This document shows, in pieces, positions 1 through 64,000 of a DNA stretch of 64,000 nt. The stretch spans positions 1,178,001-1,242,000 of the forward strand of contig CAWUCO010000291.1 of assembly GCA_963920705.1 (NCBI GenBank), in the 5' to 3' direction. The DNA comes from Odiellus spinosus (Eukaryota > Arthropoda > Arachnida > Opiliones > Phalangiidae). Each line of letters begins with the position of its first letter. Positions within the stretch are counted from its first letter, which is position 1. The notes under the pieces are model-generated. The model saw only the letters and a program-made list of their open reading frames with translations, ran no database searches and was not told the origin of the DNA. Both the position numbers and the translations under genes were made by a program.

Positions 1-475
1 CTTAGCTTGGGAAATTTGTGAATCTCTACTAGGGAAATTTGTGGATCTATACTTGGGAAATTTGTGGATCTATACTTGGTAAATATATGGATCTATGCTT
101 GGAAAGTTTTTGGATCTTTACTTGGGAAATTTGTGGATATATTCTTGGGAAATTTGTGGATATATTCTTGGGAAGTTTGTGAATATATTCTTGGGAAATT
201 TGTGGATATTCTTGGGTATTTTGTGGATCTTAACTTGGGAAATTTGTAGATCTATACTTGTTAAATTTGTGGATCTATACTTGTGATATTTGTGGATCTA
301 TACTTGGGAAATTTGTGGATCTATACATGTTAAATTTGAGGATCTATGCTTGGGAAATTTGTGGATCTATACTTGGGAAGTTTGTGGATCTATACATGTT
401 AAATTTGAGGATCTATACTTTGGAAATCTGTGGATCTATACTTGGTAAATAAGGATCTATACTTGGGAAATTTTT
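1..475 (+). repeat. Left-edge satellite segment, family A
   Basis: Diverged 23-bp monomers, mostly of the TATACTTGGGAAATTT kind, with several TACATGTTAAATTTGAGG variants near 325-410. It lies before the first AGATATATTCTTGGCAATTT marker at 476. Around 130-220 there is a run of GGATATATTC variants that I did not find in this density elsewhere, so this may be the end of another higher-order unit lying mainly outside the window. No gene is present. Confidence 0.8.
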
Positions 476-2925
476 AGATATATTCTTGGCAATTTGTCGA
501 TCTATGCTTGGGAAATTTGTGGATCTATACTTGAGAAAAGTGTGGATTTATACTTGGATATTTGTGGATCTATACTTGGGAAATTTTTGGATATATACTT
601 GGGAAATTAGTGGATGTATGCTTGGGAAATTCGTGGATCTACACTTGGGAAATTTTGAGATATATTCTTGGTAATTTGTGGATCTACACTTGGTAAATTT
701 TTGGATCTATGCTTGAGAAAAATGTGGATCTATACTTCGTTAATTTGTGGATCTATGCTTGGGAAATTTGTGGATCTATGCTTGGCAAATTTGTGGATCT
801 ATACTTGGGAAATTTGAGAATGTATGCTGGGGAAATTTGTGGATCTATGCTTGGGAAATTTGTGGATCTATGCTTGTGAAATTTGTGGATCTATGCTTGG
901 GAAATTTGTGGATCTATGCTTGGGAAATTTGTGGATCTATACTTCGTTAATTTGTGGATCTATGCTTGGGAAATTTGTGGATCTATGCTTGGGAAATTAG
1001 TGGAACTATACTTGGGAAATTTGTGGATCTATACTTGGGAAATAAGTGGATCTATACATGTTAAATTTGAGGATCTATGCTTGGGAAATGTGTGGATATA
1101 TGCTTGGGACATTTTTGGATCTATACTTGGTAAATATGTGGATCTATACTTGGGAAATCTGTGGATCTATACTTGGTAAATATGTGGATCTATACCAGAG
1201 AAATTTTTAGATATATTCTTGGCAATTTGTCGATCTATGCTTGGAAAATTTGTGGATCTATGCTTGGGAATTTTGTGGATCTATACTTGAGAAAAGTGTG
1301 GATTTATGCTTGGATATTTGTGGATCTATTATTGGGATATTTTTAGATATATACTTGGGAAATTAGTGGATGTATGCTTGGGAAATTTGTGGATCTACAC
1401 TTGGGAAATTTTGAGATATATTCTTGGTAATTTGTGGATCTACACTTTTTAAATTTTTGGATCTATGCTTGAGAAAAATGTGGATCTGTACTTCGTTAAT
1501 TTGTGGATCTATGCTTGGGAAATTTGTGGATTATTGCTTGGCAAATTTGTGGATCTATACTTGGGAAATTTGAGGATGTATGCTGGGGAAATTTGTGGAT
1601 CTATGCTTGGGAAATTTGTGGATCTATGCTTGTGAAATTTGTGGATCTATGCTTGGGAAATTTGTGGATCTATGCTTGGAAAATTTGTGGATCTATGCTT
1701 GGAAATTTGTGGATCTATACTTCGTTAATTTGTGGATCTATGCTTGGGAAATTTGTGGATCTATGCTTGGGAAATTAGTGGATCTATACATGGTAAATTT
1801 GAGGATCTATGCTTGGGAAATTTGTGGAACTATACTTGGGAAATTTGTGGAACTATACTTGGGAAATTTGTGGATCTATACTTGGGAAATAAGTGGATCT
1901 ATACATGTTAAATTTGAGGATCTATGCTTGGGAAATGTGTGGATATATGCTTGGGACATTTTTGGATCTATACTTGGTAAATATGTGGATCTATACTTGG
2001 GAAATCTGTGGATCTATACTTGGTAAATATGTGGATCTATACTAGAGAAATTTTTAGATATATTCTTGGCAATTTGTCGATCTATGCTTGGAAAATTTGT
2101 GGATCTATGCTTGGGAATTTTGTGGATCTATACTTGAGAAAAGTGTGGATTTATGCTTGGATATTTGTGGATCTATGCTTGGGAAATTTTTGGATATATA
2201 CTTGGGAAATTAGTGGATGTATGCTTGGGAAATTTGTGGATCTACACTTGGGAAATTTTGAGATATATTCTTGGTAATTTGTGGATCTACACTTGGTAAA
2301 TTTTTGGATCTATGCTTGAGAAAATGTGGATCTATACTTCGTTAATTTGTGGATCTATGCTTGGGAAATTTGTGGATCTATGCTTGGCAAATTTGTGGAT
2401 CTATACTTGGGAAATTTGAGGATGTATGCTGGGGAAATTTGTGGATCTATGCTTGGGAAATTTGTGGATCTATGCTTGTGAAATTTGTGGATCTATGCTT
2501 GGGAAATTTGTGGATCTATGCTTGGGAAATTTGTGGATCTATGCTTGGGAAATTTGTGGATCTATACTTCGTTAATTTGTGGATCTATGCTTGGGAAATT
2601 TGTGGATCTATGCTTGGGAAATTAGTGGATCTATACATGGAAAATTTGAGGATCTATGCTTGGGAAATTTGTGGAACTATACTTGGGAAATTTGTGGAAC
2701 TATACTTGGGAAATTTGTGGAACTATACTTGGGAAATTTGTGGATCTATACTTGGGAAATAAGTGGATCTATACATGCTAAATTTGAGGATCTATACTTG
2801 GGAAATTTGTGGATATATGCTTGGGACATTTTTGGATCTATACTTGGTAAATATGTTGATCTATACTTGGGAAATCTGTGGATCTATACTTGGAAAATAT
2901 GTGGATCTATACTAGGGAAATTTTT
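476..2925 (+). repeat. Family A higher-order repeat, three units of 0.73-0.87 kb
   Basis: The marker AGATATATTCTTGGCAATTT starts at 476, 1209, 2056 and 2926, giving units of 733, 847 and 870 bp. The differences are close to multiples of 23. Each unit carries the same order of rare monomers: the GTCGATC variant, CTTGAGAAAAGTGTGG (near 530, 1288, 2131), GAGATATATTCTTGG (near 657, 1411, 2250), a CTTCGTTAATTT variant, GATGTATGCTGGGG, then the ATAAGTGG and TACATGTTAAATTTGAGG pair. The fixed order of variants marks a true higher-order repeat, not a simple run of monomers. The span from about 1,015 is present again from 11,281. Confidence 0.88.
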
Positions 2926-5900
2926 AGATATATTCTTGGCAATTTGTCGATCTATGCTTGGAAAATTTGTGGATCTATGCTTGGGAAATTTGTGGATCTA
3001 TACTTGAGAAAAGTGTGGATTTATACTTGGATATTTGTGGATCTATACTTGGGAAATTTTTGGATATATACTTGGGAAATTAGTGGATGTATGCTTGGGA
3101 AATTTGTGGATCTACACTTGGGAAATTTTGAGATATATTCTTGGTAATTTGTGGATCTACACTTGGTAAATTTTTGGATCTATGCTTAAGAAAAATGTGG
3201 ATCTATACTTCGTTAATTTGTGGATCTATGCTTGGGAAATTTGTGGATCTATGCTTGGCAAATTTGTGGATCTATACTTGGGAAATTTGAGGATGTATGC
3301 TGGGGAAATTTGTGGATCTATGCTTGTGAAATTTTTGGATCTATGCTTGGGAAATTTGTGGATCTATGCTTGGGAAATTTGTGGATCTATGCTTGGGAAA
3401 TTTGTGGATCTATGCTTCGTTAATTTGTGGATCTAAGCTTGGGAAATTTGTGGATCTATGCTTGGGAAATTAGTGGATCTGTACATGGTAAATTTGAGGA
3501 TCTATGCTTGGGAAATTTGTGGATCTATGCTTTAGAAATTAGTGGATCTATACATGTTAAATTTGAGGATCTATTCTGGGGAAATTTGTGGATCTATGCT
3601 TGGGAAATTAGTGGATCTGTACATTTTAAATTTGAGGATCTATGCTTGGGAAATTTGTGGATCTATATTTGGTAAATTTGTGGATCTATACTTGGTAAAT
3701 TTGTGGATCTATGCTTTAGAAATTAGTGGATCTATACATGTTAAATTTGAGGATCTATTCTGGGGAAATTTGTGGATCTATGCTTGGGAAATTTGTGGTT
3801 CTATGCTTGAGAAATTTGTGGATCTTTGCTTGGGAAATTTGTGGATCTATGCTTGGGAAATTTTTGGATCTATGCTTATTAAATATGTGGATCCATACTT
3901 GGTAAATTTGTCGATCTATGCTTGGAAAATTTGGGGATCTATGCTTGAGAAAAATGTGGATCTATACTTAGAAATTTGTGGATATATACTTGGAAAAATT
4001 TGTGGATCTATACTTGGAACATTTTTGGATATATACTTCGTAAATTTGTGGATCTATGCTTGGGAAATTTGTGGATCTATACTTCGTTAATTTGTGGATC
4101 TATGCTTGGGAGATTTATGGATCTATGCTTGGGAAATTTTTGGATCTATGCATGGGGAATTTGTGGATCTATACTTGGTAAATTTGTGGATCTATGCTTG
4201 GGAAATTTGTGGATCTATACATGTTAAATTTGAGGATCTATGCTTGGGAAATTAGTGGATCTATACTTGGTAAATTTGTGGATCTACGCTTGGAAAATTT
4301 GTGGATCTATACTTGGGAAATTTGTGGAACTATACTTGGGAAATTTGTGGAACTATACTTGGGAAATTTGTGGATCTATACTTGGGAAATAAGTGGATCT
4401 ATACATGTTAAATTTGAGGATCTTTGCTTGGCAAATTTGTGGATATATGCTCGGGAAATTTTTGGATCTATACTTGGGAAATCTGTGGATCTATACTTCG
4501 TAAATATGTGGATCTATACTTGGGAAATTTTTAGATATATTCTTGGCAATTTGTCGATCTATGCTTGGAAAATTTGTGGATCTATGCTTGGGAAATTATT
4601 GGATTTAGCCTGGGATATTTGTGGAACTAAACTTGGGAAATTTGTGGAACTATACTTGGGAAATTTGTGGATCTATACTTGGGAAATAAGTGGATCTATA
4701 CATGGTAAATATGTGGATCTATACTTGGAAATTTTTAGATATATTCTTGGCAATTTGTCGATGTATGCTTGGAAAATTTGTGGATCTATGCTTGGGAAAT
4801 TTGTGGATCTATGCTTGGGAAATTTGTGGATCTATACTTGAGAAAAGTGTGGATTTATACTTGGATATTTGTGGATCTATACTTGGGAAATTAGTGGATG
4901 TATGCTTGGGAAATTTGTGGATCTACACTTGGGAAATTTTGAGATATATTCTTGGTAATTTGTGGATCTATACTTGGTAAATTTTTGGATCTATGCTTGA
5001 GAAAAATATGGATCTATGCTTGGGAAAAATGTGGATCTATACTTGGATATTTGTGGATCTATACTTGGGAAATTATTGGATTTTGCCTGGGATATTTGTG
5101 AATCTATACTTGGGAAATTTGTGGATCTATACTTGGGAAATTAGTGGATATATACATGGTAAATTTGAGGATCTAGCTTGGGAAATTTGTGGATCTATGC
5201 TTGGAAAATTTGTGGATCTATACTTGGGAAATTTGAGGATCTATGCTGGGGAAATTTGTGGATCTATGCTTGGGAAATTTGTGGATCTATGCTTGGGAAA
5301 TTTGTGGATCTAGGCTTGGGAAATTTGTGGATCTATGCTTTAGAAATTTGTGGATCTATACTTCGTTAATTTGTGGATCTATGCTTGGGAAATTAGTGGA
5401 TCTATACATGGTAAATTTGAGGATCTATGCTTGGGAAATTTCTGGATCTATACTTGGGAAATTAGTGGATCTATACATGGTAAATTTGAGGATCTATGCT
5501 TGGGAAATTTGTGGATCTATACTTGGTAAATTTGTGGATCTATACTTGGAACATTTGTGGATATATACTTCGTAAAATTGTGGATCTATGCTTGGGAAAT
5601 TTGTGGATCTATGCTTGGGAAATTTGTGGATCTATACTTCGTTAATTTGTGGATCTATGCTTGGGAAATTTGTTGATCTATGCATGGGGAATTTGTGGAT
5701 CTATACTTGGTAAATTTGTGAATCTATGCTTGGGAAATTTGTGGATCTATACTTGGGAAATTTGTGGAACTATACTTGGGAAATTTGTGGATCTATACTT
5801 GGGAAATTGGTGGATCTATACATGTTAAATTTGAGGATCTATGCTTGGGAAATTAGTGGATCTATACTTGGTAAATTTGTGGATCAACGCTTGGAAAATT

Positions 5901-6040
5901 TGTGGATCTATACTTGGGAAATTTGTGGAACTATCTTTGGAAATTTGTGGATATATGCTTGGGAAATTTTTGGATCTATACTTGGGAAATCTGTGGATCT
6001 ATACTTGGTAAATATGTTTATCTATACTTGGGAAATTTTT
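2926..6040 (+). repeat. 3.1-kb family A duplication unit, copy 1
   Basis: From the marker at 2926 to the same marker at 6041 the period is 3,115 bp. Distinctive internal monomers recur in copies 2 and 3. They include the GGGGATC variant near 3,930, GGATCCATAC near 3,890, the ATTGGATTTAGCCTGGG monomer near 4,600 and ATTGGATTTTGCCTGGG near 5,080. A second, 0.2-kb-spaced pair of AGATATATTCTTGG markers lies near 4,533 and 4,735. All of it is satellite, with no gene. Confidence 0.87.
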
Positions 6041-9000
6041 AGATATATTCTTGGCAATTTGTCGATCTATGCTTGGAAAATTTGTGGATCTATGCTCGGG
6101 AAATTTGTGGATCTATACTTGAGAAAAGTGTGGATTTATACTTGGATATTTGTGGATCTATACTTGGGAAATTTTTGGATATATACTTGGGAAATTAGTG
6201 GATGTATGCTTGGGAAATTTGTGGATCTACACTTGGGAAATTTTGAGATATATTCTTGGTAATTTGTGGATCTACACTTGGTAAATTTTTGGATCTATGC
6301 TTAAGAAAAATGTGGATCTATACTTCGTTAATTTGTGGATCTATGCTTGGGAAATTTGTGGATCTATGCTTGGCAAATTTGTGGATCTATACTTGGGAAA
6401 TTTGAGGATGTATGCTGGGGAAATTTGTGGATCTATGCTTGTGAAATTTGTGGATCTATGCTTGTGAAATTTGTGGATCTATGCTTGGGAAATTTGTGGA
6501 TCTATGCTTGGGAAATTTGTGGATCTATGCTTCGTTAATTTGTGGATCTAAGCTTGGGAAATTTGTGGATCTATGCTTGGGAAATTAGTGGATCTGTACA
6601 TGGTAAATTTGAGGATCTATTCTGGGGAAATTTGTGGATCTATGCTTGGGAAATTAGTGGATCTGTACATGGTAAATTTGAGGATCTATGCTTGGGAAAT
6701 TTGTGGATCTATATTTGGTAAATTTGTGGATCTATACTTGGTAAATTTGTGGATCTATGCTTTAGAAATTAGTGGATCTATACATGTTAAATTTGAGGAT
6801 CTATTCTGGGGAAATTTGTGGATCTATGCTTGGGAAATTTGTGGTTCTATGCTTGAGAAATTTGTGGATCTTTGCTTGGGAAATTTGTGGATCTATGCTT
6901 GGGAAATTTTTGGATCTATGCTTATTAAATATGTGGATCCATACTTGGTAAATTAGTCGATCTATGCTTGGAAAATTTGGGGATCTATGCTTGAGAAAAA
7001 TGTGGATCTATACTTAGAAATTTGTGGATATATACTTGGAAAAATTTGTGGATCTATACTTGGAACATTTTTGGATATATACTTCGTAAATTTGTGGATC
7101 TATGCTTGGGAAATTTGTGGATATATACTTCGTTAATTTGTGGATCTATGCTTGGGAGATTTATGGATCTATGCTTGGGAAATTTTTGGATCTATGCATG
7201 GGGAATTTGTGGATCTATACTTGGTAAATTTGTGGATCTATGCTTGGGAAATTTGTGGATCTATACTTGGGAAATTTGTGGATCTATACTTGGGAAATTA
7301 GTGGATCTATACATGTTAAATTTGAGGATCTATGCTTGGGAAATTAGTGGATCTATACTTGGTAAATTTGTGGATCTACGCTTGGAAAATTTGTGGATCT
7401 ATACTTGGGAAATTTGTGGAACTATACTTGGGAAATTTGTGGATCTATACTTGGGAAATAAGTGGATCTATACATGTTAAATTTGAGGACCTTTGCTTGG
7501 AAAATTTGTGGATATATGCTCGGGAAATTTTTGGATCTATACTTGGGAAATCTGTGGATCTATACTTGGGAAATCTGTGGATCTATACTTCGTAAATATG
7601 TGGATCTATACTTGGGAAATTTTTAGATATATTCTTGGCAATTTGTCGATCTATGCTTGGAAAATTTGTGGATCTATGCTTGGGAAATTATTGGATTTTG
7701 CCTGGGATATTTGTGGAACTAAACTTGGGAAATTTGTGGAATTATACTTGGGAAATTTGTGGATCTATACTTGGGAAATAAGTGGATCTATACATGGTAA
7801 ATATGTGGATCTATACTTGGAAATTTTTAGATATATTCTTGGCAATTTGTCGATGTATGCTTGGAAAATTTGTGGATCTATGCTTGGGAAATTTGTGGAT
7901 CTATGCTTGGGAAATTTGTGGATCTATACTTGAGAAAAGTGTGGATTTATACTTGGATATTTGTGGATCTATACTTGGGAAATTAGTGGATGTATGCTTG
8001 GGAAATTTGTGGATCTACACTTGGGAAATTTTGAGATATATTCTTGGTAATTTGTGGATCTATACTTGGTAAATTTTTGGATCTATGCTTGAGAAATATA
8101 TGGATCTATGCTTGGGAAAAATGTGGATCTATACTTGGATATTTGTGGATCTATACTTGGGAAATTATTGGATTTTGCCTGGGATATTTGTGAATCTATA
8201 CTTGGGAAATTTGTGGATCTATACTTGGGAAATTAGTGGATATATACATGGTAAATTTGAGGATCTAGCTTGGGAAATTTGTGGATCTATGCTTGGAAAA
8301 TTTGTGGATCTATACTTGGGAAATTTGAGGATCTATGCTGGGGAAATTTGTGGATCTATGCTTGGGAAATTTGTGGATCTATGCTTGGGAAATTTGTGGA
8401 TCTAGGCTTGGGAAATTTGTGGATCTATGCTTTAGAAATTTGTGGATCTATACTTCGTTAATTTGTGGATCTATGCTTGGGAAATTAGTGGATCTATACA
8501 TGGTAAATTTGAGGATCTATGCTTGGGAAATTTCTGGATCTATACTTGGGAAATTAGTGGATCTATACATGGTAAATTTGAGGATCTATGCTTGGGAAAT
8601 TTGTGGATCTATACTTGGTAAATTTGTGGATCTATACTTGGAACATTTGTGGATATATACTTCGTAAATTTGTGGATCTATGCTTGGGAAATTTGTGGAT
8701 CTATACTTCGTTAATTTGTGGATCTATGCTTTGGAAATTTGTTGATCTATGCATGGGGAATTTGTGGATCTATACTTCGTAAATTTGTGAATCTATGCTT
8801 GGGAAATTTGTGGATCTATACTTGGGAAATTTGTGGAACTATACTTGGGAAATTTGTGGATCTATACTTGGGAAATTGGTGGATCTATACATGTTAAATT
8901 TGAGGATCTATGCTTGGGAAATTAGTGGATCTATACTTGGTAAATTTGTGGATCAACGCTTGGAAAATTTGTGGATCTATACTTGGGAAATTTGTGGAAC

Positions 9001-9109
9001 TATCTTTGGAAATTTGTGGATATATGCTTGGGAAATTTTTGGATCTATACTTGGGAAATCTGTGGATCTATACTTGGTAAATATGTTTATCTATACTTGG
9101 GAAATTTTT
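6041..9109 (+). repeat. 3.1-kb family A duplication unit, copy 2
   Basis: Tandem copy of the preceding unit, 3,069 bp long. Matching markers lie at offsets of 3,115, then 3,046, then 3,092, then 3,069 bp as monomers are gained or lost. Examples are the GCCTGGG monomers near 7,697 and 8,178, and the GTCGATGTATGC variant near 7,850 matching the one near 4,758. Compared with copy 1 it has one extra CTTGGGAAATCTGTGG monomer near 7,560, and GAGAAATATATGG where copy 1 reads GAGAAAAATATGG. Confidence 0.87.
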
Positions 9110-10147
9110 AGATATATTCTTGGCAATTTGTCGATCTATGCTTGGAAAATTTGTGGATCTATGCTCGGGAAATTTGTGGATCTATACTTGAGAAATTAGT
9201 GGATGTATGCTTGGGAAATTTGTGGATCTACGCTTGGGAAATTTTGAGATATATTCTTGGTAATTTGTGGATCTATACTTGGGAAATTTGAGGATCTATG
9301 CTGCGGAAATTTGTGGATCTATGCTTGGCAAAATTGGTGGATCTATGCTTGGGAAATTTGTGGATCTATGCTTGGGAAATTTGTGGATCTATGCTTTAGA
9401 AATTTGTGGATCTATGCTTGGGTAATTTGTGGATCTATGCTTGGGAAATTTGTGGATCTATGCTTGGGAAATTAGTGGATCTATACATGGTAAATTTGAG
9501 GATCTATGCTTGGGAAATTTGTGGATCTATACTTGGTAAATTTGTGGATCTATGCTTGGGAAATTTATGGATCTATGCTTGGAAAATTTGTGGATCTATA
9601 CTTGGGAAATTTGAGGATCTATGCTGCGGAAATTTGTGGATCTATGCTTGGGAAATTTTTGGATCTATGCTTGGGAAGTTTGTGGATCTATGCTTGGGAA
9701 ATTTGTGGATCTATGCTTTAGAAATTTGTGGATCTATGCTTTAGAAATTTGTGGATCTATACTTCGTTAATTTGTGGATCTTTGCTTGGGAAATTTGTGG
9801 ATCTATGCTTGGGAAATTAGTGGATCTATACATGGTAAATTTGAGGATCTATGCTTGGGAAATTTGTGGATCTATGCTTGGAAAATTTGTGGATCTATGC
9901 TTAGAAAATTTGTGGATCTATACTTTGGAAATTTGAGGATCTATGCTGCGGAAATTTGTGGATCTATGCTTGGGAAATTTGTGGATCTATGCTTGGGAAA
10001 TTTGTGGATCTATGCTTGGGAAATTTGTGGATCTATGCTTGGGTAATTTGTGGATCTATGCTTGGGAAATTTGTGGATCTATGCTTGGGAAATTAGTGGA
10101 TCTATACATGGTAAATTTGAGGATCTATGCTTGGGAAATTTGTGGAT
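9110..10147 (+). repeat. A-to-B transition segment, first copy
   Basis: Begins with family A markers (AGATATATTCTTGG at 9,110; GAGATATATTCTTGG near 9,246) and passes into family B monomers, with the first ATGCTGCGGAAATTT variants near 9,299, 9,620 and 9,950. At about 9,187 the text CTTGAGAAATTAGTGG fuses the start of the CTTGAGAAAAGTGTGG monomer to a later one, a deletion of about three monomers relative to copy 1 near 6,117. The whole segment recurs at 16,261-17,275 with the same fusion. Confidence 0.85.
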
Positions 10148-11280
10148 ATATGCTTGGGAAATTTTTGGATCTATACTTGGTAAATATGTGGATCTATACT
10201 TGGGAAATCTGTGGATCTATACTTGGGAAATTTTTAGATATATTCTTGGCAATTTGTCGATCTATGCTTGGGAAATTTGTGGATCTATACTTGAGAAAAG
10301 TGTGGATCTATACTTGGATATTTGTGGATCTATACTTGGGAAATTTTTGGATCTATACTTGGGAAATTATTGGATTTTGCCTGGGATATTTGTGAATCTA
10401 TGCTTGGGAAATTTGTGGATCTATACTTGGGAAATTAGTGGATCTATATATGGTAAATTTGAGGATCAATGCTTGGGAAATTTGTGGATCTATGCTTGGA
10501 AAATTTGTGGATCTATGCTTGGGAAATTTGTGGATCTATGCTTGGGAAGTTTGTGGATCTATGCTTGGGAAATTTGTGGATCTATACTTTAAAAATTTGT
10601 GGATCTATACTTCGTTAATTTGTGGATCTATGCTTGGGAAATTTGTGGATCTATGCTTGGGAAATTAGTGGATCTATACTTGGTAAATTTGTGGATCTAT
10701 GCTTGGGAAATTTGTGGATCTATGCTTGGAAAATTTGTGGATCTATACTTGGGAAATTTGAGGATCTATGCTGCGGAAATTTGTGGATCTATGCTTGGAA
10801 AATTTGTGGATCTATACTTGGGAAATTTGAGGATCTATGCTGCGGAAATTTGTGGATCTATGCTTGGGAAATTTGTGGATCTATGCTTGGGAAATTTGTG
10901 GATCTATGCTTGGGACGTTTGTGGATCTATGCTTGGGAAGTTTGTGGATCTATGCTTTGGAAATTTGTGGATCTATGCTTTAGAAATTTGTGGATCTATA
11001 CATGTTAAATTTGAGGAACTATGCTTGGGAAATTAGTGGATCTATACTTGGTAAATTTGTGGATCTACGCTTGGAAAATTTGTGGATCTATACTTGGGAA
11101 ATTTGTGGAACTATGCTTGGTAAATTTGTGGAACTATACTTGGGAAATTTGTGGATCTATACTTGGGAAATAAGTGGATCTATACATGTTAAATTTGAGG
11201 ATCTATGCTTGGGAAATTTGTGGATATATGCTTGGGAAATTTTTGGATCTATACTTGGTAAATATGTGGATCTATACTTG
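10148..11280 (+). repeat. Mixed A/B satellite segment between large copies
   Basis: About 10,148-10,400 is family A (CTTGAGAAAAGTGTGG near 10,292, the GCCTGGG monomer near 10,379). About 10,400-10,990 is family B, with two ATGCTGCGGAAATTT variants near 10,780 and 10,840. About 10,990-11,280 is family A with TACATGTTAAATTTGAGG. The segment breaks the homology between 9,110-10,147 and 16,261-17,275, which ends at about 10,147/17,275. It contains only satellite monomers. Confidence 0.75.
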
Positions 11281-13168
11281 GGAAATTTGTGGATCTATAC
11301 TTGGGAAATAAGTGGATCTATACATGTTAAATTTGAGGATCTATGCTTGGGAAATGTGTGGATATATGCTTGGGACATTTTTGGATCTATACTTGGTAAA
11401 TATGTGGATCTATACTTGGGAAATCTGTGGATCTATACTTGGTAAATATGTGGATCTATACCAGAGAAATTTTTAGATATATTCTTGGCAATTTGTCGAT
11501 CTATGCTTGGAAAATTTGTGGATCTATGCTTGGGAATTTTGTGGATCTATATTTGAGAAAAGTGTGGATTTATGCTTGGATATTTGTGGATCTATTATTG
11601 GGAAATTTTTAGATATATACTTGGGAAATTAGTGGATGTATGCTTGGGAAATTTGTGGATCTACACTTGGGAAATTTTGAGATATATTCTTGGTAATTTG
11701 TGGATCTACACTTTTTAAATTTTTGGATCTATGCTTGAGAAAAATGTGGATCTATACTTCGTTAATTTGTGGATCTATGCTTGGGAAATTTGTGGATTAT
11801 TGCTTGGCAAATTTGTGGATCTATACTTGGGAAATTTGAGGATGTATGCTGTGGAAATTTGTGGATCTATGCTTGGGAAATTTGTGGATCTATGCTTGTG
11901 AAATTTGTGGATCTATGCTTGGGAAATTTGTGGATCTATGCTTGGAAAATTTGTGGATCTATGCTTGGAAATTTGTGGATCTATACTTCGTTAATTTGTG
12001 GATCTATGCTTGGGAAATTTGTGGATCTATGCTTGGGAAATTAGTGGATCTATACATGGTAAATTTGAGGATCTATGCTTGGGAAATTTGTGGAACTATA
12101 CTTGGGAAATTTGTGGAACTATACTTGGGAAATTTATGGATCTATACTTGGGAAATAAGTGGATCTATACATGTTAAATTTGAGGATCTATGCTTGGGAA
12201 ATGTGTGGATATATGCTTGGGACATTTTTGGATCTATACTTGGTAAATATGTGGATCTATACTTGGGAAATCTGTGGATCTATTCTTGGTAAATATGTGG
12301 ATCTATACTAGAGAAATTTTTAGATATATTCTTGGCAATTTGTCGATCTATGCTTGGAAAATTTGTGGATCTATGCTTGGGAATTTTGTGGATCTATACT
12401 TGAGAAAAGTGTGGATTTATGCTTGGATATTTGTGGATCTATACTTGGGAAATTTTTGGATATATACTTGGGAAATTAGTGGATGTATGCTTGGGAAATT
12501 TGTGGATCTACACTTGGGAAATTTTGAGATATATTCTTGGTAATTTGTGGATCTACACTTGGTAAATTTTTGGATCTATGCTTGAGAAAATGTGGATCTA
12601 TACTTCGTTAATTTGTGGATCTATGCTTGGGAAATTTGTGGATCTATACTTGGGAAATTTGAGGATGTATGCTGGGGAAAGTTGTGGATCTATGCTTGGG
12701 AAATTTGTGGATCTATGCTTGTGAAATTTGTGGATCTATGCTTGGGAAATTTGTGGATCTATGCTTGGGAAATTTGTGGATCTATGCTTGGGAAATTTGT
12801 GGATCTATACTTCGTTAATTTGTGGATCTATGCTTGGGAAATTTGTGGATCTATGCTTGGGAAATTAGTGAATCTATACATGGTAAATTTGAGGATCTAT
12901 GCTTGGGAAATTCGTGGAACTATACTTGGGAAATTTGTGGAACTATACTTGGGAAATTTGTGGAACTATACTTGGGAAATTTGTGGATCTATACTTGGGA
13001 AATAAGTGGATCTATACATGCTAAATTTGAGGATCTATACTTGGGAAATTTGTGGATATATGCTTGGGACATTTTTGGATCTATACTTGGTAAATATGTT
13101 GATCTATACTTGGGAAATCTGTGGATCTATACTTGGAAAATATGTGGATCTATACTAGGGAAATTTTT
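11281..13168 (+). repeat. Second copy of family A units from 1,015-2,925
   Basis: Matches the window start at an offset of 10,266 bp, changing to 10,243 bp (one monomer fewer) near 12,640. The strongest marker is the rare CCAGAGAAATTT monomer, at 1195 and again at 11461. The higher-order marker AGATATATTCTTGG at 1209, 2056 and 2926 recurs at 11475, 12322 and 13169. Upstream of about 11,281 the match stops (GTGGATC here, GTGGAAC near 1,008). Confidence 0.88.
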
Positions 13169-16100
13169 AGATATATTCTTGGCAATTTGTCGATCTATGC
13201 TTGGAAAATTTGTGGATCTATGCTTGGGAAATTTGTGGATCTATACTTGAGAAAAGTGTGGATTTATACTTGGATATTTGTGGATCTATACTTGGGAAAT
13301 TTTTGGATATATACTTGGGAAATTAGTGGATGTATGCTTGGGAAATTTGTGGATCTACACTTGGGAAATTTTGAGATATATTCTTGGTAATTTGTGGATC
13401 TACACTTGGTAAATTTTTGGATCTATGCTTGAGAAAAATGTGGATCTATACTTCGTTAATTTGTGGATCTATGCTTGGGAAATTTGTGGATCTATGCTTG
13501 GCAAATTTGTGGAACTATACTTGGGAAATTTGATGATGTATGCTGGGGAAATTTGTGGATCTATGCTTGTGAAATTTGTGGATTTATGCTTGTGAAATTT
13601 GTGGATCTATGCTTGGGAAATTTGTGGATCTATGCTTGGGAAATTTGTGGATCTATGCTTCGTTAATTTGTGGATCTAAGCTTGGGAAATTTGTGGATCT
13701 ATGCTTGGGAAATTAGTGGATCTGTACATGGTAAATTTGAGGATCTATGCTTGGGAAATTTGTGGATCTATGCTTTAGAAATTAGTGGATCTATACATGT
13801 TAAATTTGAGGATCTATTCTGGGGAAATTTGTGGATCTATGCTTGGGAAATTAGTGGATCTGTACATTGTAAATTTGAGGATCTATGCTTGGGAAATTTG
13901 TGGATCTATATTTGGTAAATTTGTGGATCTATACTTGGTAAATTTGTGGATCTATGCTTTAGAAATTAGTGGATCTATACATGTTAAATTTGAGGATCTA
14001 TTCTGGGGAAATTTGTGGATCTATGCTTGGGAAATTTGTGGTTCTATGCTTGAGAAATTTGTGGATCTTTGCTTGGGAAATTTGTGGATCTATGCTTGGG
14101 AAATTTTTGGATCTATGCTTATTAAATATGTGGATCCATACTTGGTAAATTTGTCGATCTATGCTTGGAAAATTTGGGGATCTATGCTTGAGAAAAATGT
14201 GGATCTATACTTAGAAATTTGTGGATATATACTTGGAAAAATTTGTGGATCTATACTTGGAACATTTGTGGATATATACTTCGTAAATTTGTGGATCTAT
14301 GCTTGGGAAATTTGTGGATCTATACTTCGTTAATTTGTGGATCTATGCTTGGGAGATTTATGGATCTATGCTTGGGAAATTTTTGGATCTATGCATGGGG
14401 AATTTGTGGATCTATACTTGGTAAATTTGTGGATCTATGCTTGGGAAATTTGTTGATCTATACTTGGGAAATTTGTGGATCTATACTTGGGAAATTAGTG
14501 GATCTATACATGTTAAATTTGAGGATCTATGCTTGGGAAATTAGTGGATCTATACTTGGTAAATTTGTGGATCTACGCTTGGAAAATTTGTGGATCTATA
14601 CTTGGGAAATTTGTGGAACTATACTTGGGAAATTTGTGGATCTATACTTGGGAAATAAGTGGATCTATACATGTTAAATTTGAGGATCTATGCTTGGCAA
14701 ATTTGTGGATATATGCTCGGGAAATTTTTGGATCTATACTTGGGAAATCTGTGGATCTATACTTCGTAAATATGTGGATCTATACTTGGGAAATTTTTAG
14801 ATATATTCTTGGCAATTTGTCGATCTATGCTTGGAAAATTTGTGGATCTATGCTTGGGAAATTATTGGATTTTGCCTGGGATATTTGTGGAACTAAACTT
14901 GGGAAATTTGTGGAACTATACTTGGGAAATTTGTGGATCTATACTTGGGAAATAAGTGGATCTATACATGGTAAATATGTGGATCTATACTTTGAAATTT
15001 TTAGATATATTCTTGGCAATTTGTCGATGTATGCTTGGAAAATTTGTGGATCTATGCTTGGGAAATTTGTGGATCTATGCTTGGGAAATTTGTGGATCTA
15101 TACTTGAGAAAAGTGTGGATTTATACTTGGATATTTGTGGATCTATACTTGGGAAATTAGTGGATGTATGCTTGGGAAATTTGTGGATCTACACTTGGGA
15201 AATTTTGAGATATATTCTTGGTAATTTGTGGATCTATGCTTGAGAAAAATATGGATCTATGCTTGGAAAAAATGTGGATCTATACTTGGATATTTGTGGA
15301 TCTATACTTGGGAAATTATTGGATTTTTCCTGGGATATTTGTGAATCTATGCTTGGGAAATTTGTGGATCTATACTTGGGAAATTAGTGGATCTATACAT
15401 GGTAAATTTGAGGATCTAGCTTGGGAAATTTGTGGATCTATGCTTGGAAAATTTGTGGATCTATACTTGGGAAATTTGAGGATCTATGCTGGGGAAATTT
15501 GTGGATCTATGCTTGGGAAATTTGTGGATCTATGCTTGGGAAATTTGTGGATCTAGGCTTGGGAAATTTGTGGATCTATGCTTTAGAAATTTGTGGATCT
15601 ATACTTCGTTAATTTGTGGATCTATGCTTGGGAAATTAGTGGATCTATACATGGTAAATTTGAGGATCTATGCTTGGGAAATTTCTGGATCTATACTTGG
15701 GAAATTAGTGGATCTATACATGGTAAATTTGAGGATCTATGCTTGGGAAATTTGTGGATCTATACTTGGTAAATTTGTGGATCTATACTTGGAACATTTG
15801 TGGATATATACTTCGTAAATTTGTGGATCTATGCTTGGGAAATTTGTGGATCTATACTTCGTTAATTTGTGGATCTATGCTTGGGAAATTTGTTGATCTA
15901 TGCATGGGGAATTTGTGGATCTATACTTGGTAAATTTGTGAATCTATGCTTGGGAAATTTGTGGATCTATACTTGGGAAATTTGTGGAACTATACTTGGG
16001 AAATTTGTGGATCTATACTTGGGAAATTGGTGGATCTATACATGTTAAATTTGAGGATCTATGCTTGGGAAATTAGTGGATCTATACTTGGTAAATTTGT

Positions 16101-16260
16101 GGATCAACGCTTGGAAAATTTGTGGATCTATACTTGGGAAATTTGTGGAACTATCTTTGGAAATTTGTGGATATATGCTTGGGAAATTTTTGGATCTATA
16201 CTTGGGAAATCTGTGGATCTATACTTGGTAAATATGTTTATCTATACTTGGGAAATTTTT
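13169..16260 (+). repeat. 3.1-kb family A duplication unit, copy 3
   Basis: Unit of 3,092 bp between AGATATATTCTTGG markers. It matches copy 1 at 10,243-10,266 bp and copy 2 at 7,128-7,197 bp. The GCCTGGG monomers lie near 14,875 and as TTTCCTGGG near 15,328. Near 14,684-14,760 it resembles copy 1 (GGCAAATTT and a single CTTGGGAAATCTGTGG). At 14,870 it shares the TTTTGCC of copy 2. This suggests exchange among the copies. It has lost one monomer near 15,240 relative to both others. Confidence 0.85.
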
Positions 16261-49100: not shown

Positions 49101-49206
49101 ATTTGTGGATCTATGCTTGGGAAATTTGTGGATATATGCTTGGGAAATTTGTGGGTCTATATTTGGGAAATTAGTGGATTTATACATGCTAATTTGAGGA
49201 TCTATG
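46191..49206 (+). repeat. Family A/B segment with 1.95-kb duplication
   Basis: The rare GGGGAAATTCGTGG monomer at 46,551 recurs at 48,498 (offset 1,947), and ATGCCGCGGAAATTT, the only CCGCGG seen, at 47,169 recurs at 49,093 (offset 1,924, one monomer lost). Both are followed by the same GTGGGTCTATATTTGGG monomer. The CTTGAGAAAAGTGTGG monomers near 46,260 and 48,134 are the last family A markers in the window. Homology stops near 49,206, where the second copy joins block P3 through CTTGGCAAATTT. Confidence 0.83.
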
Positions 49207-56600: not shown

Positions 56601-58570
56601 GGATCTATGCTTGGTAAATTTGTGGATCTATGCTTGGGAAATTTGTGGATCTATGCTTGGGAAATTTGTGGATCTATGCTTGGGTAATTTGTGGATCTAT
56701 GCTTGGGAAATTTGTAAATCTATGCTTGGGAAATTTGAGGATCTATGCTTGGGAAATTAGTGGATCTATACATGGTAAATTTGAGGATCTATGCTTGGGA
56801 AATTTGTGGATCTATACTTGGTAAATTTGTGGATCTATGCTTGGGAAATTTGTGGATCTATGCTTGGAAAATTTGTGGATCTATACTTAGGAAATTTGAG
56901 GATCTATGCTGCGGAAATTTGTGGATCTATGCTTGGGACATTTGTGGATATATGCTTGGGAAATGTTGTGGATCTATATTTGGGAAATTAGTGGATCTAT
57001 ACATGCTAATTTGAGGATCTATGCTTGGGAAATTTGTGGATCTATGCTTGGAAAATTTGAGGATCTATGCTTGGGAAATTTGTGGATCTATGCTTGGGAA
57101 ATTTGTGGATCTATGCTTTAGAAATTTGTGGATCTATACTTCGTTAATTTGTGGATCTATGCTTGGGAAATTAGTGGATCTATACTTGGTAAATTTGTGG
57201 ATCTATACTTTGGAAATTTGAGGATCTATGCTGCGGAAATTTGTGGATCTATGCTTGGGAAATTTGTGGATCTATGCTTGGGAAATTTGTGGGTCTATGC
57301 TTGGGGAATTTGTGGATCTATGCTTGGGAAATTTGTGGATCTATGCTTGGGTAATTTGTGGATCTATGCTTGGGAAATTTGTGGATCTATGCTTGGGAAA
57401 TTAGTGGATCTATACATGGTAAATTTGAGGATCTATGCTTGGGAAATTTGTGGATCTATACTTGGTAAATTTGTGGATCTATGCTTGGGAAATTTGTGGA
57501 TCTATGCTTGGAAAATTTGTGGATCTATACTTAGGACATTTGAGGATCTATGCTGCGGAAATTTTTGGATCTATACTTGGTAAATTTGTGGATCTATACT
57601 TTGGAAATTTGAGGATCTATGCTGCGGAAATTTGTGGATCTATGCTTGGGAAATTTGTGGATCTATGCTTGGGAAATTTGTGGATCTATGCTTGGGGAAT
57701 TTGTGGATCTATGCTTGGGAAATTTGTGGATCTATGCTTGGGTAATTTGTGGATCTATGCTTGGGAAATTTGTGGATCTATGGTTGGGAAATTAGTGGAT
57801 CTATACATGGTAAATTTGAGGATCTATGCTTGGGAAATTTGTGGATCTATTCTTGGTAAATTTGTGGATCTATGCTTGGGAAATTTGTGGATCTATGCTT
57901 GGGAAATTTGTGGATATATGCTTGGAAAATTTGTGGATCTATACTTAGGACATTTGAGGATCTATGCTGCGGAAATTTTTGGATCTATGCTTGGGAAATT
58001 TGTGGATCTATGCTTGGAAAATTTGTGGATCTATACTTGGGAAATTTGAGGTTCTATGCTGCGGAAATTTGTGGATCTATGATTGGGAAATTTGTGGATC
58101 TATGCTTGGTAAATTTGTGGATCTATGCTTGGGAAATTTGTGGATCTATGCTTGGGAAATTTGTGGATCTATGCTTGGGTAATTTGTGGATCTATGCTTT
58201 AGAAATTTGTGGATCTATACTTCGTTAATTTGTGGATCTATGCTTGGGAAATTAGTGGATCTATACTTGGTAAATTTGTGGATCTATACTTTGGAAATTT
58301 GAGCATCTATGCTGCGGAAATTTGTGGATCTATGCTTGGGAAATTTGTGGATCTATGCTTGGGAAATTTGTGCATCTATGCTTGGGGAATTTGTGGATCT
58401 ATGCTTGGGAAATTTGTGGATCTATGCTTTTGTAATTTGTGGATCTATGCTTGGGAAATTTGTGGATCTATGCTTGGGAAATTAGTGGATCTATACATAA
58501 TAAATTTGAGGATCTATGCTTGGGAAATTTGTGGATCTATACTTGGTAAATTTGTGGATCTATGCTTGGG
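50678..58570 (+). repeat. Family B block P3, fuller copy of P
   Basis: From about 50,514 to 54,450 it matches P2 at an offset of 25,303 bp (25,349 between about 52,836 and 53,640). From about 54,055 to 58,450 it matches P1 at 33,535-33,650 bp. The 24-bp monomer markers at 51,692, 55,326 and 56,958 fall exactly where P1 and P2 predict. Near 52,800-52,900 it has two monomers more than P2 and six more than P1. Satellite only. Confidence 0.86.
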
Positions 58571-61500
58571 AAATTTGTGGATCTATGCTTGGAAAATTTG
58601 TGGATCTATACTAAGGACATTTGAGGATCTATGCTGCGGAAATTTTTGGATCTATACTTGGTAAATTTGTGGATCTATACTTTGGAAATTTGAGGATCTA
58701 TGCTGCGGAAATTTGTGGATCTATGCTTGGGAAATTTGTGGATCTATGCTCGGGAAATTTGTGGATCTATGCTTGGGGAATTTGTGGATCTATGCTTGGG
58801 AAATTTGTGGATCTATGCTTGGGTAATTTGTGGATCTATGCTTGGGAAATTTGTGGATCTATGCTTGGGAAATTAGTGGATCTATACATGGTAAATTTGA
58901 GGATCTATGCTTGGGAAATTTGTGGATCTATTCTTGGTAAATTTGTGGATCTATGCTTGGGAAATTTGTGGATCTATGCTTGGAAAATTTGTGGATCTAT
59001 ACTTAGGACATTTGAGGATCTATGCTGCGGAAATTTTTGGATCTATGCTTGGGAAATTTGTGGATCTATGCTTGGAAAATTTGTGGATCTATACTTGGGA
59101 AATTTGAGGATCTATGCTGCGGAAATTTGTGGATCTATGCTTGGTAAATTTGTGGATCTATGCTTGGGAAATTTGTGGATCTATGCTTGGGAAATTTGTT
59201 GATCTATGCTTGGGTAATTTTTGGATCTATGCTTGGGAAATTTGTAAATCTATGCTTGGGAAATTTGAGGATCTATGCTTGGGAAATTAGTGGATCTATA
59301 CATGGTAAATTTGAGGATCTATGCTTGGGAAATTAGTGGATCTATACATGGTAAATTTGAGGATCTATGCTGCGGAAATTTGTGGATCTATGCTTGGGAC
59401 ATTTGTGGATATATGCTTTAGAAATTTGTGGATCTATATTTGGGAAATTAGTGGATCTATACATGCTAATTTGAGGATCTATGCTTGGGAAATTTGTGGA
59501 TCTATGCTTGGAAAATTTGTGGATCTATACTTGGGAAATTTGAGGATCTATGCTTGGGAAATTTGTGGATCTATGCTTGGTAAGTTTGTGGATCTATGCT
59601 TGGGAAATTTGTGGATCTATGCTTTAGAAATTTGTAGATCTATACTTCGTTAATTTGTGGATCTATGCTTAGGATATTTGTGGATCTATGCTTGGGAAAT
59701 TGGTGGATCTATACATGGTAAATTTGAGGATCTATGCTTGGGAAATTTGTGGATCTATACTTGGTAAATTTGTGGATCTATGCTTGGGAAATTTGTAGAT
59801 CTATGCTTGGAAAATTTGTGGATCTATACTTGGGAAATTTGAGGATCTATGCTGCGGAAATTTGTGGATCTATGCTTGGGTAATTTGTGGATCTATGCTT
59901 GGGAAATTTGTGGATCTATGCTTGGGAAATTTGTGGATCTATGCTTGGGAAATTTGTGGATCTATGCTAGGGAAATTTGTGTATCTATGCTTGGGAAATT
60001 TATGGATCTATGCTTGGGTAATTTGTGGATCTATGCTTGGGAAATTTGTGGATCTATGCTTGGGAAATTTGTGGATCTATGCTTGGGGAATTAGTGGATC
60101 TATACATGGTAAGTTTGTGGATCTATGCTTGGGAAATTTGTGGATCTATGCTTTAGAAATTTGTAGATCTATACTTCGTTAATTTGTGGATCTATGCTTA
60201 GGATATTTGTGGATCTATGCTTGGGAAATTAGTGGATCTATACATGGTAAATTTGTGGATCTATGCTTGGGAAATTTGTGGATCTATGCTTGGGAAATTT
60301 GTTGATCTATGCTTGGGTAATTTTTGGATCTATGCTTGGGAAATTTGTAAATCTATGCTTGGGAAATTTGAGGATCTATGCTTGGGAAATTAGTGGATCT
60401 ATACATGGTAAATTTGAGGATCTATGCTTGGGAAATTAGTGGATCTATACATGGTAAATTTGAGGATCTATGCTGCGGAAATTTGTGGATCTATGCTTGG
60501 GACATTTGTGGATATATGCTTGGGAAATTTGTGGATCTATATTTGGGAAATTAGTGGATCTATACATGCTAATTTGAGGATCTATGCTTGGGAAATTTTT
60601 GGATCTATGCTTGGAAAATTTGTGGATCTATACTTGGGAAATTTGAGGATCTATGCTTGGGAAATTTGTGGATCTATGCTTGGTAAGTTTGTGGATCTAT
60701 GCTTGGGAAATTTGTGGATCTATGCTTTAGAAATTTGTAGATCTATACTTCGTTAATTTGTGGATCTATGCTTAGGATATTTGTGGATCTATGCTTGGGA
60801 AATTAGTGGATCTATACATGGTAAATTTGAGGATCTATGCTTGGGAAATTTGTGGATCTATACTTGGTAAATTTGTGGATCTATGCTTGGGAAATTTGTG
60901 GATCTATGCTTGGAAAATTTGTGGATCTATGCTTGGGAAATTTGTGGATCTATGCTTCGGAAATTTGTGGATCTATGCTTGGGTAATTTGTGGATCTATG
61001 CTTGGGAAATTTGTGGATCTATGCTTGGGAAATTTGTGGATCTATGCTTGGGAAATTTGTGGATCTATGCTAGGGAAATTTGTGTATCTATGCTTGGGAA
61101 ATTTATGGATCTATGCTTGGGTAATTTGTGGATCTATGCTTGGGAAATTTGTGGATCTATGCTTGGGAAATTTGTGGATCTATGCTTGGGGAATTAGTGG
61201 ATCTATACATGGTAAGTTTGTGGATCTATGCTTGGGAAATTTGTGGATCTATGCTTTAGAAATTTGTAGATCTATACTTCGTTAATTTGTGGATCTATGC
61301 TTAGGATATTTGTGGATCTATGCTTGGGAAATTAGTGGATCTATACATGGTAAATTTGTGGATCTATGCTTGGGAAATTTGTGGATCTATGCTTGGAAAA
61401 TTTGTGGATCTATACTAAGGACATTTGAGGATCTATGCTGCGGAAATTTTTGGATCTATACTTGGTAAATTTGTGGATCTATACTTTGGAAATTTGAGGA

Positions 61501-64000
61501 TCTATGCTGCGGAAATTTGTGGATCTATGCTTGGGAAATTTGTGGATCTATGCTCGGGAAATTTGTGGATCTATGCTTGGGGAATTTGTGGATCTATGCT
61601 TGGGAAATTTGTGGATCTATGCTTGGGTAATTTGTGGATCTATGCTTGGGAAATTTGTGGATCTATGCTTGGGAAATTAGTGGATCTATACATGGTAAAT
61701 TTGAGGATCTATGCTTGGGAAATTTGTGGATCTATTCTTGGTAAATTTGTGGATCTATGCTTGGGAAATTTGTGGATCTATGCTTGGAAAATTTGTGGAT
61801 CTATACTTAGGACATTTGAGGATCTATGCTGCGGAAATTTTTGGATCTATGCTTGGGAAATTTGTGGATCTATGCTTGGAAAATTTGTGGATCTATACTT
61901 GGGAAATTTGAGGATCTATGCTGCGGAAATTTGTGGATCTATGCTTGGGAAATTTGTGGATCTATGCTTGGGAAATTTGTTGATCTATGCTTGGGTAATT
62001 TTTGGATCTATGCTTGGGAAATTTGTAAATCTATGCTTGGGAAATTTGAGGATCTATGCTTGGGAAATTAGTGGATCTATACATGGTAAATTTGAGGATC
62101 TATGCTTGGGAAATTAGTGGATCTATACATGGTAAATTTGAGGATCTATGCTGCGGAAATTTGTGGATCTATGCTTGGGACATTTGTGGATATATGCTTG
62201 GGAAATTTGTGGATCTATATTTGGGAAATTAGTGGATCTATACATGCTAATTTGAGGATCTATGCTTGGGAAATTTGTGGATCTATGCTTGGAAAATTTG
62301 TGGATCTATACTTGGGAAATTTAGGATCTATGCTTGGGAAATTTGTGGATCTATGCTTGGTAAGTTTGTGGATCTATGCTTGGGAAATTTGTGGATCTAT
62401 GCTTTAGAAATTTGTAGATCTATACTTCGTTAATTTGTGGATCTATGCTTAGGATATTTGTGGATCTATGCTTGGGAAATTAGTGGATCTATACATGGTA
62501 AATTTGTGGATCTATGCTTGGGAAATTTGTGGATCTATGCTTGGGAAATTTGTGCATCTATGCTTGGGGAATTTGTGGATCTATGCTTGGGAAATTTGTG
62601 GATCTATGCTTTTGTAATTTGTGGATCTATGCTTGGGAAATTTGTGGATCTATGCTTGGGAAATTAGTGGATCTATACATAATAAATTTGAGGATCTATG
62701 CTTGGGAAATTTGTGGATCTATACTTGGTAAATTTGTGGATCTATGCTTGGGAAATTTGTGGATCTATGCTTGGAAAATTTGTGGATCTATACTAAGGAC
62801 ATTTGAGGATCTATGCTGCGGAAATTTTTGGATCTATACTTGGTAAATTTGTGGATCTATACTTTGGAAATTTGAGGATCTATGCTGCGGAAATTTGTGG
62901 ATCTATGCTTGGGAAATTTGTGGATCTATGCTCGGGAAATTTGTGGATCTATGCTTGGGGAATTTGTGGATCTATGCTTGGGAAATTTGTGGATCTATGC
63001 TTGGGTAATTTGTGGATCTATGCTTGGGAAATTTGTGGATCTATGCTTGGGAAATTAGTGGATCTATACATGGTAAATTTGAGGATCTATGCTTGGGAAA
63101 TTTGTGGATCTATTCTTGGTAAATTTGTGGATCTATGCTTGGGAAATTTGTGGATCTATGCTTGGAAAATTTGTGGATCTATACTTAGGACATTTGAGGA
63201 TCTATGCTGCGGAAATTTTTGGATCTATGCTTGGGAAATTTGTGGATCTATGCTTGGAAAATTTGTGGATCTATACTTGGGAAATTTGAGGATCTATGCT
63301 GCGGAAATTTGTGGATCTATGCTTGGTAAATTTGTGGATCTATGCTTGGGAAATTTGTGGATCTATGCTTGGGAAATTTGTTGATCTATGCTTGGGTAAT
63401 TTTTGGATCTATGCTTGGGAAATTTGTAAATCTATGCTTGGGAAATTTGAGGATCTATGCTTGGGAAATTAGTGGATCTATACATGGTAAATTTGAGGAT
63501 CTATGCTTGGGAAATTAGTGGATCTATACATGGTAAATTTGAGGATCTATGCTGCGGAAATTTGTGGATCTATGCTTGGGACATTTGTGGATATATGCTT
63601 GGGAAATTTGTGGATCTATATTTGGGAAATTAGTGGATCTATACATGCTAATTTGAGGATCTATGCTTGGGAAATTTGTGGATCTATGCTTGGAAAATTT
63701 GTGGATCTATACTTGGGAAATTTGAGGATCTATGCTTGGGAAATTTGTGGATCTATGCTTGGTAAGTTTGTGGATCTATGCTTGGGAAATTTGTGGATCT
63801 ATGCTTTAGAAATTTGTAGATCTATACTTCGTTAATTTGTTGATCTATGCTTAGGATATTTGTGGATCTATGCTTGGGAAATTAGTGGATCTATACATGG
63901 TAAATTTGAGGATCTATGCTTGGGAAATTTGTGGATCTATACTTGGTAAATTTGTGGATCTATGCTTGGGAAATTTGTGGATCTATGCTTGGAAAATTTG
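58571..64000 (+). repeat. Family B block Q2, second copy of Q1, cut by window end
   Basis: Matches Q1 at 29,396 bp from the CTAAGG marker (29,215/58,611), at 29,419 bp after one monomer missing from Q1 near 29,450, and again at 29,396 bp after one monomer lost here near 61,940. The CTAAGG markers at 61,415 and 62,793 correspond to 31,996 and 33,397. Differences from Q1 are rare: CTTTAGAAATTT near 59,415 for CTTGGGAAATTT, and TTTTTGG near 60,597. The block runs off the window. Confidence 0.87.

What the first reader, a model, noticed from the sequence alone, without database searches (positions are those of the whole stretch)
1..64000. Pure one-orientation 23-bp array of at least 64 kb
Every line of the window is built from one monomer, CTTGGGAAATTT + GTGGATCTATG, with no inversion, transposon, or spacer. 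Satellites this long usually pick up mobile-element insertions, so a 64-kb clean stretch suggests active homogenisation or a young array. I do not recognise the monomer as a named satellite.
Basis: partly seen in the sequence, partly recalled or inferred. Interest (0 to 1): 0.7.

Follow-up and report, generated by a model that had tools for sequence, protein, structure and literature searches.

The report
Harvestman 23-bp satellite DNA array
The window is a slice of a large 23-base satellite repeat in a harvestman's genome that has recently re-copied itself in kilobase pieces; the sequence seems undescribed, but the behaviour is ordinary for satellite DNA.

Summary

The window is contig C282:1,178,001-1,242,000 of a genome whose scaffold lengths match the harvestman Odiellus spinosus, qqOdiSpin1.1. 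C282 is unplaced and is a patchwork of satellites.

The 23-bp family is far larger than 64 kb. Sparse samples are positive over the first 2-3 Mb of chromosomes 8, 10, 13 and 14, over about 0.9 Mb inside chromosome 2, and in two C282 blocks, with array-level variants.

"No inversion, no transposon" is true of the window only. Strand flips and insertions lie elsewhere in the same array, and a clean 64 kb is not statistically surprising.

The window shows recent local amplification: 62.7% lies in duplicated blocks of at least 500 bp at over 95% identity, the longest exact repeat is 2,004 bp, and one 92-bp haplotype occurs 48 times genome-wide, all on C282.

Best reading: a major, probably pericentromeric satellite under ordinary concerted evolution.

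The parts
1..64000 (+). 23-bp satellite array, consensus CTTGGGAAATTTGTGGATCTATG, 2,787 internal monomers plus a partial one at each edge; continues beyond both edges
1006..6073 (+). segment duplicated at 11272-16293 (4,930 aligned columns, 41 mismatches, 99.17%, 230 gap columns)
11272..16293 (+). second copy of 1006-6073
6098..10073 (+). segment duplicated at 13226-17201 (3,723 aligned columns, 22 mismatches, 99.41%, 506 gap columns)
17354..24919 (+). longest chained duplicated segment, repeated at 50797-58477; 98.04% in a gapped alignment with 1,081 gap columns; its ungapped sub-blocks of at least 500 bp are 99.7-100%
29160..34560 (+). most similar large pair, repeated at 58556-63956: 5 mismatches in 5,378 aligned columns, 46 gap columns
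58556..63956 (+). second copy of 29160-34560
32865..34868 (+). longest exact repeat, 2,004 bp; its second copy starts at 62261 and runs 264 bp past the window edge (to C282:1,242,264)
34511..49468 (+). stretch with no duplicated block of at least 500 bp at over 95% ungapped identity

Best explanation
The window is part of a major non-coding, probably pericentromeric, satellite family of the harvestman Odiellus spinosus. Shown: long head-to-tail arrays on at least five chromosomes and on the unplaced scaffold C282; array-level diagnostic variants; kilobase-scale copies at 99-100% identity that keep the 23-bp register; a haplotype private to this scaffold; strand flips and inserted elements elsewhere in the arrays. 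Inferred: arrays turn over by homology-driven, in-register unequal exchange or break-induced replication within one array, so that segments of about 0.5-8 kb are copied and the variants they carry spread locally, while insertions survive mainly in poorly homogenised parts. Also inferred: the DNA is packed as constitutive heterochromatin beside centromeres. No sequence-specific function is needed to explain what is seen.
For: Species by scaffold lengths, 16 of 16 chromosomes and the mitochondrion. Positive samples: chr8 10 of 10 from 0 to 3.0 Mb, chr10 10 of 10 from 0 to 3.0 Mb, chr13 5 of 5 to 2.0 Mb, chr14 6 of 6 to 3.0 Mb. The chr10 and chr13 scaffolds end in TTAGG telomere repeat at the other end, as expected if the satellite marks the hard-to-assemble centromeric side. 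Chr2: satellite from about 27.09 to 27.95 Mb, followed by an 18-bp satellite. Leave-one-out assignment by monomer profile: chr2 6 of 6, chr8 10 of 10, chr10 8 of 9, distal C282 5 of 5, window class 17 of 19, proximal C282 10 of 16. Duplications. Longest exact repeat inside the window 1,740 bp against 113-150 bp in 10 monomer-order shuffles; 58 distinct block ends but 0 of 2,787 internal monomers outside 20-24 bp, which argues for in-register, homology-driven copying. One 92-bp haplotype: 48 of 48 genome-wide copies on C282, all +, 20 of them in the window.
Against: Location beside the centromere is inferred only from scaffold geometry; chr8 and chr14 do not show a telomere at the far end. Weaker homogenisation at array ends is seen on the right edge of the block (own-consensus identity 0.841 at 1,267 kb and 0.860 at 1,272 kb) but hardly on the left (0.888 at 535 kb, close to the 0.90-0.93 of most interior samples). 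Variants are not strictly chromosome-specific: the single chr13 and chr14 samples were assigned to chr10 and chr8, and chr14 carries three variants along its length. Block ends are places where similarity stops, not proven exchange points. No chromatin, read or FISH data were available.
Confidence: 0.8

Rival explanations
1. The 23-bp satellite is itself the functional centromere repeat (it carries the centromeric histone), and its turnover is driven by centromere activity.
For: Multi-megabase positive range at one scaffold end on four chromosomes, two of them with a telomere at the other end; recent local amplification.
Against: Found on 5 chromosomes plus C282; 10 of 14 readable chromosome starts lack it, though other positions on those chromosomes were not sampled. 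Several other satellites share the same regions. No CENP-B-box-like site in the window (motif recalled; 0 matches with up to 1 mismatch, 1.2 expected by chance) and no unusual folding, 4 of 4 pieces within 0.5 SD of shuffles; neither is required of a centromere.
Confidence: 0.15
2. The kilobase blocks come from rolling-circle amplification of excised circles reinserted into the array, rather than from unequal exchange or break-induced replication.
For: Reinsertion by homology would also keep the register (0 of 2,787 internal monomers outside 20-24 bp), and copies are dispersed at offsets of 0.4-34 kb.
Against: Rolling circle predicts several head-to-tail copies of one circle-sized unit; no block of at least 500 bp abuts its own copy (tandem-like list empty) and no period holds through the window (best monomer-lag agreement 0.123 against 0.046 expected; up to 0.27 in 300-monomer sub-windows).
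Confidence: 0.12
3. The long clean stretch or its duplicated blocks are an assembly artefact (collapse, expansion or mis-join).
For: C282 is unplaced and has the round length 2,575,000 bp, which suggests arbitrary cut points at scaffolding; no reads could be examined.
Against: Mean HiFi read about 11.4 kb (larger run) or 9.2 kb (smaller run) against a longest exact repeat of 2,004 bp; window letters are all A, C, G, T; published QV 60.6.
Confidence: 0.05

Closest known systems
Satellite DNA under concerted evolution by unequal exchange (Smith model), as reviewed in PMC8122249 and PMC12692304 (passages read)
   Same: Long head-to-tail arrays, variation balanced by non-reciprocal exchange, array-level diagnostic variants, more divergence toward an array end
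   Different: No difference in kind was found; the monomer sequence has no match in the held papers
Alpha-satellite-type higher-order repeats (PMC8122249 passages)
   Same: Blocks of many monomers are copied together, so blocks are far more alike than neighbouring monomers
   Different: 23-bp unit; blocks are irregular in size and spacing with no fixed higher-order period
Minisatellite (11-60 bp units by the length classes given in PMC12692304, passage read)
   Same: Unit length of 23 bp falls in that class
   Different: Array ranges of hundreds of kilobases to megabases are on the scale of satellite blocks

Membership tests
Satellite DNA | Head-to-tail tandem array of one monomer | tested here: met
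Satellite DNA | Long arrays at several chromosomal places | tested here: met
   chr2, 8, 10, 13, 14 and C282 by sparse sampling
Satellite DNA | Concerted evolution: repeats of one array more alike than repeats of different arrays | tested here: met
   leave-one-out assignment; exceptions: 6 of 16 proximal C282 samples went to the window class, 2 of 19 window-class samples to proximal C282, 1 of 9 chr10 samples to chr14
Satellite DNA | Located in constitutive heterochromatin | not testable with these tools
   needs C-banding, FISH or chromatin data
Higher-order-repeat satellite (alpha type) | Fixed multi-monomer period through the array | tested here: not met
   best monomer-lag agreement 0.123 over the window against 0.046 expected; local maxima up to 0.27 at lag 130
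Centromeric satellite | Carries the centromeric histone | not testable with these tools
   no chromatin data
Centromeric satellite | Present on all chromosomes (usual but not necessary) | tested here: inconclusive
   found on 5 of 16; the other 11 were sampled only at one or both ends or not readably
Minisatellite | Unit of 11-60 bp | tested here: met
   23 bp

The most novel reading that the evidence does not exclude
The 23-bp repeat is the centromere-forming satellite of several harvestman chromosomes, with variants shared by chromosome groups (8 with 14, 10 with 13), turning over by kilobase-scale in-register copying rather than by a fixed higher-order repeat; it would be a first centromere-sequence candidate in Opiliones.
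Probability: 0.15. Interest if true: 0.5.

Novelty: new member of a known kind. Interest (0 to 1): 0.28.

Why it matters
It supplies a probe sequence and a map of array-level variants for an order with little satellite data: only 3 held papers contain both 'Opiliones' and 'satellite DNA' (listing and starts of abstracts seen). It also shows an array in which copying of kilobase segments, without a fixed higher-order period, dominates recent change. It does not alter what is known about how satellites work.

Tried and rejected
Fixed higher-order repeat through the window: rejected. Secondary structure: no excess over shuffles, 4 of 4 pieces. CENP-B-box-like site (motif recalled): 0 matches. RNA gene in the window: no Rfam match at gathering score. 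Protein-coding reading: the 69-bp triple consensus has no stop in the forward frames (read by eye), so long forward frames arise by chance; longest stop-to-stop frame 391 codons on + against 68 on -. Gapped self-BLAST was useless because every offset aligns. A second MAFFT run on the 29160-34560 pair and its continuation slipped register and gave 4-10% mismatches per kb; I rely on the ungapped blocks (1,945 bp at 99.79%, 1,100 bp at 100%, 1,633 bp at 100%) and. In one search one other pair (24883-29142 with 50209-54445) aligned at only 93.08% with 1,037 gap columns, although one search finds 99.7-100% ungapped blocks inside that range. The monomer was absent from viral contigs (0 stretches). 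Genome-wide abundance was not obtained: the abundance pattern was prepared but its search did not complete. Pfam named neither of the two ORFs scanned in L033, so calling that element Polinton-like is by eye and recall.

Rows dropped before counts. One search left out L108 (strand switch inside), L014, L028, L030, L033, L046, L050, L116, and L003 and L005-L008 (samples overlapping one another); the samples came later. One search used the first 1,000 bases of each sample and 16 one-kb pieces of the window. One search used 68 samples and also left out L003 and L005-L008.
Full report
What is in the window. The 64 kb are one tandem array with a 23-bp unit in a single orientation. Wrap-around alignment gave 2,789 monomers including a partial one at each edge; of 2,787 internal monomers 2,642 are 23 bp, 127 are 22 bp, 15 are 24 bp, 2 are 21 bp and 1 is 20 bp. 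Mean identity to the consensus in 500-bp bins is 0.919. TRF agrees. No interruption was found inside the window.

Where it lies. The window is C282:1,178,001-1,242,000 of a 443,074,358-bp genome held in 286 contigs. Scaffold lengths match the Odiellus spinosus assembly qqOdiSpin1.1 (PMC11503004; parts 1 and 2 of 4 of the text read): contig C1 has exactly the published longest length, 35,433,943 bp; 16 of 16 published chromosome lengths agree with contigs C1-C8 and C11-C18; the 16,074-bp C286 agrees with the 16.07-kb mitochondrion. The held copy is slightly smaller than the published one (310 scaffolds, 443,687,896 bp). C282 is unplaced and 2,575,000 bp long, a round length that suggests arbitrary cut points. 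Samples along it show a 22-bp satellite at its start, 31-bp, 52-bp, 23-bp, 27-bp and 14-bp satellites in turn, and again a 23-bp variant to its end, with non-satellite stretches between some of them. The 23-bp block around the window is positive in samples from 535 kb to about 1,290 kb and negative at 520 kb and 1,295 kb.

How large the family is. Chromosome 8: 10 of 10 samples from 0 to 3.0 Mb are 23-bp satellite, 0 of 5 from 3.5 to 8 Mb. Chromosome 10: 10 of 10 from 0 to 3.0 Mb, 0 of 5 from 3.5 to 8 Mb. Chromosome 13: 5 of 5 to 2.0 Mb, not at 3.0 Mb. Chromosome 14: 6 of 6 to 3.0 Mb, far edge not found. Chromosome 2: about 27.09-27.95 Mb, with a non-satellite sample at 27.625 Mb. These are sparse samples, so continuity between them is inferred. 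Of 16 chromosome starts 2 read N; of the 14 readable ones 4 are 23-bp satellite. The exact consensus occurs 3,392 times on + and 649 on -, against 0 for the reversed control (the places listed are only the first 100). Four tandem copies of the A-ending monomer occur 1,925 and 494 times, control 0.

Variants. The majority monomer ends ..GGATCTATA on chr2..GAATCTATA on most of chr8..GGATCTACA on most of chr10..GGATCTATG in most of the window, and ..TTTTTGGATCTATA or ..TTTTTCGATCTATA in the distal C282 block. Leave-one-out assignment was 6 of 6 (chr2), 10 of 10 (chr8), 8 of 9 (chr10), 5 of 5 (distal C282), 17 of 19 (window class) and 10 of 16 (proximal C282, the other 6 going to the window class); the single chr13 and chr14 samples went to chr10 and chr8. 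Later samples show three variants along chr14. Variants are thus array-level and partly shared between chromosomes, not strictly chromosome-specific.

How the array changes. In the window 62.7% of bases lie in blocks of at least 500 bp and over 95% ungapped identity. The pair 29160-34560 and 58556-63956 has 5 mismatches in 5,378 aligned columns. The longest exact repeat inside the window is 1,740 bp, against 113-150 bp in ten monomer-order shuffles, and 2,004 bp with the right flank. No period holds through the window (best lag agreement 0.123, 0.046 expected), though 300-monomer sub-windows reach 0.27. There are 58 distinct block ends but 0 of 2,787 internal monomers outside 20-24 bp, which points to homology-driven, in-register copying; block ends are where similarity stops and need not each be an exchange. 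A 92-bp haplotype seen 20 times in the window occurs 48 times genome-wide, 48 of 48 on C282 and on +, in four clusters near 614-618, 905-963, 1,012-1,037 and 1,195-1,241 kb. With an assumed mutation rate of 3e-9 per site per generation (recalled for arthropods) and one generation a year (PMC11503004), 5 in 5,378 corresponds to very roughly 0.15 million years; conversion would make this a lower bound.

Homogeneity along C282. The window's G-ending core has own-consensus identity 0.93-0.94 with almost no indels, against 0.90-0.93 in most A-ending samples; the right edge falls to 0.841 at 1,267 kb and 0.860 at 1,272 kb, but the left edge at 535 kb is 0.888. The expected pattern of poorer homogenisation at array ends (PMC12692304, passage read) is therefore seen clearly on one side only.

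Purity outside the window. In 68 sampled pieces (124,249 array bases) there are 5 interruptions of at least 100 bp, in 3 pieces: two in L030, two in L033 and one in L050. One of them, at the start of L033, may be an element at the array border, and the one in L050 runs off the sample; an insert of about 100 bp in L146 fell below the threshold. By eye: an element with inverted termini CAGTGGCGGCGGACGG and a likely 8-bp target duplication GTAAATTT at C282:802.75-803.14 kb (hAT-like, recalled), another with inverted termini at 801.3-802.2 kb, a third at 1,287.7-1,288.7 kb, and the end of a multi-gene element near 1,285.0 kb. Expected interruptions in 64 kb are 2.6 (P(0) = 0.08), or 1.5 if affected pieces are counted once (P(0) = 0.21), so the clean window is not remarkable. 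Strand flips occur on C282 near 603.15 kb (minus at 610 kb, plus again by 614 kb), on chr2 between 27.59 and 27.67 Mb, and on chr8, chr10 and chr14.

Mechanism and verdict. The evidence fits ordinary concerted evolution of a satellite by unequal exchange or break-induced replication (both named in PMC8122249, passages read). Constitutive heterochromatin has been reported in harvestmen (PMC11855311, passages read), but I have no cytology for this repeat. A centromere role is possible and untested. I found no earlier description: 0 held papers with the literal monomer; 3 with a 23-bp monomer, satellite or tandem-repeat phrase, none on an arachnid by title; 3 with both Opiliones and satellite DNA, none on harvestmen by title; and nothing fitting among the rows listed in wider searches. 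The library is partial, and Dfam and Repbase were not available. Ordinary in kind, apparently new in sequence.

Noticed in passing
C282 outside the window: L009, L010, L011, L016-L018, L025, L034-L036: C282 is a mosaic of at least five other satellites: 22-bp, 31-bp (50% GC), 52-bp (with a 209-bp period in L025), 27-bp and 14-bp.
   Followed up: partly
L009 (C282 start) and L086 (chr2 at 30.0 Mb): The same 22-bp satellite, in opposite orientation, occurs at the start of C282 and inside chromosome 2.
   Followed up: no
L057, L058, L080, L081 (chr2, 28.05-28.6 Mb): An 18-bp AT-rich satellite follows the 23-bp block on chromosome 2.
   Followed up: no
L062 (C283:1-800): Tandem tRNA-Phe(GAA) genes about 155 bp apart; ARAGORN finds two and Rfam three in 800 bp.
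   Followed up: no
L078 (C200:1-500, contig of 115,584 bp): By eye, sequence like mitochondrial ND5 at the start of a contig much longer than the mitochondrial contig C286; a possible nuclear mitochondrial insertion.
   Followed up: no
L011 (C282:400001-410000) and L033 (C282:1280001-1290000): Several ORFs of mobile-element type. In L011 one matches an integrase core with a chromodomain; another matches an AAA domain below the curated cut-off. Two L033 ORFs match no Pfam family; they look Polinton-like by eye.
   Followed up: partly
L065 (C1:1-800): Mixed TCAGG/TTAGG repeats near the start of chromosome 1, while its other end carries pure TTAGG.
   Followed up: no
L033:6141-6185: A short inverted piece of satellite beside its direct copy forms a palindrome inside the diverged array edge (by eye).
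   Followed up: no
L108 (chr10 at 2.0 Mb): A strand switch of the 23-bp array falls inside this 600-bp sample, with no foreign sequence visible at the junction (by eye).
   Followed up: no
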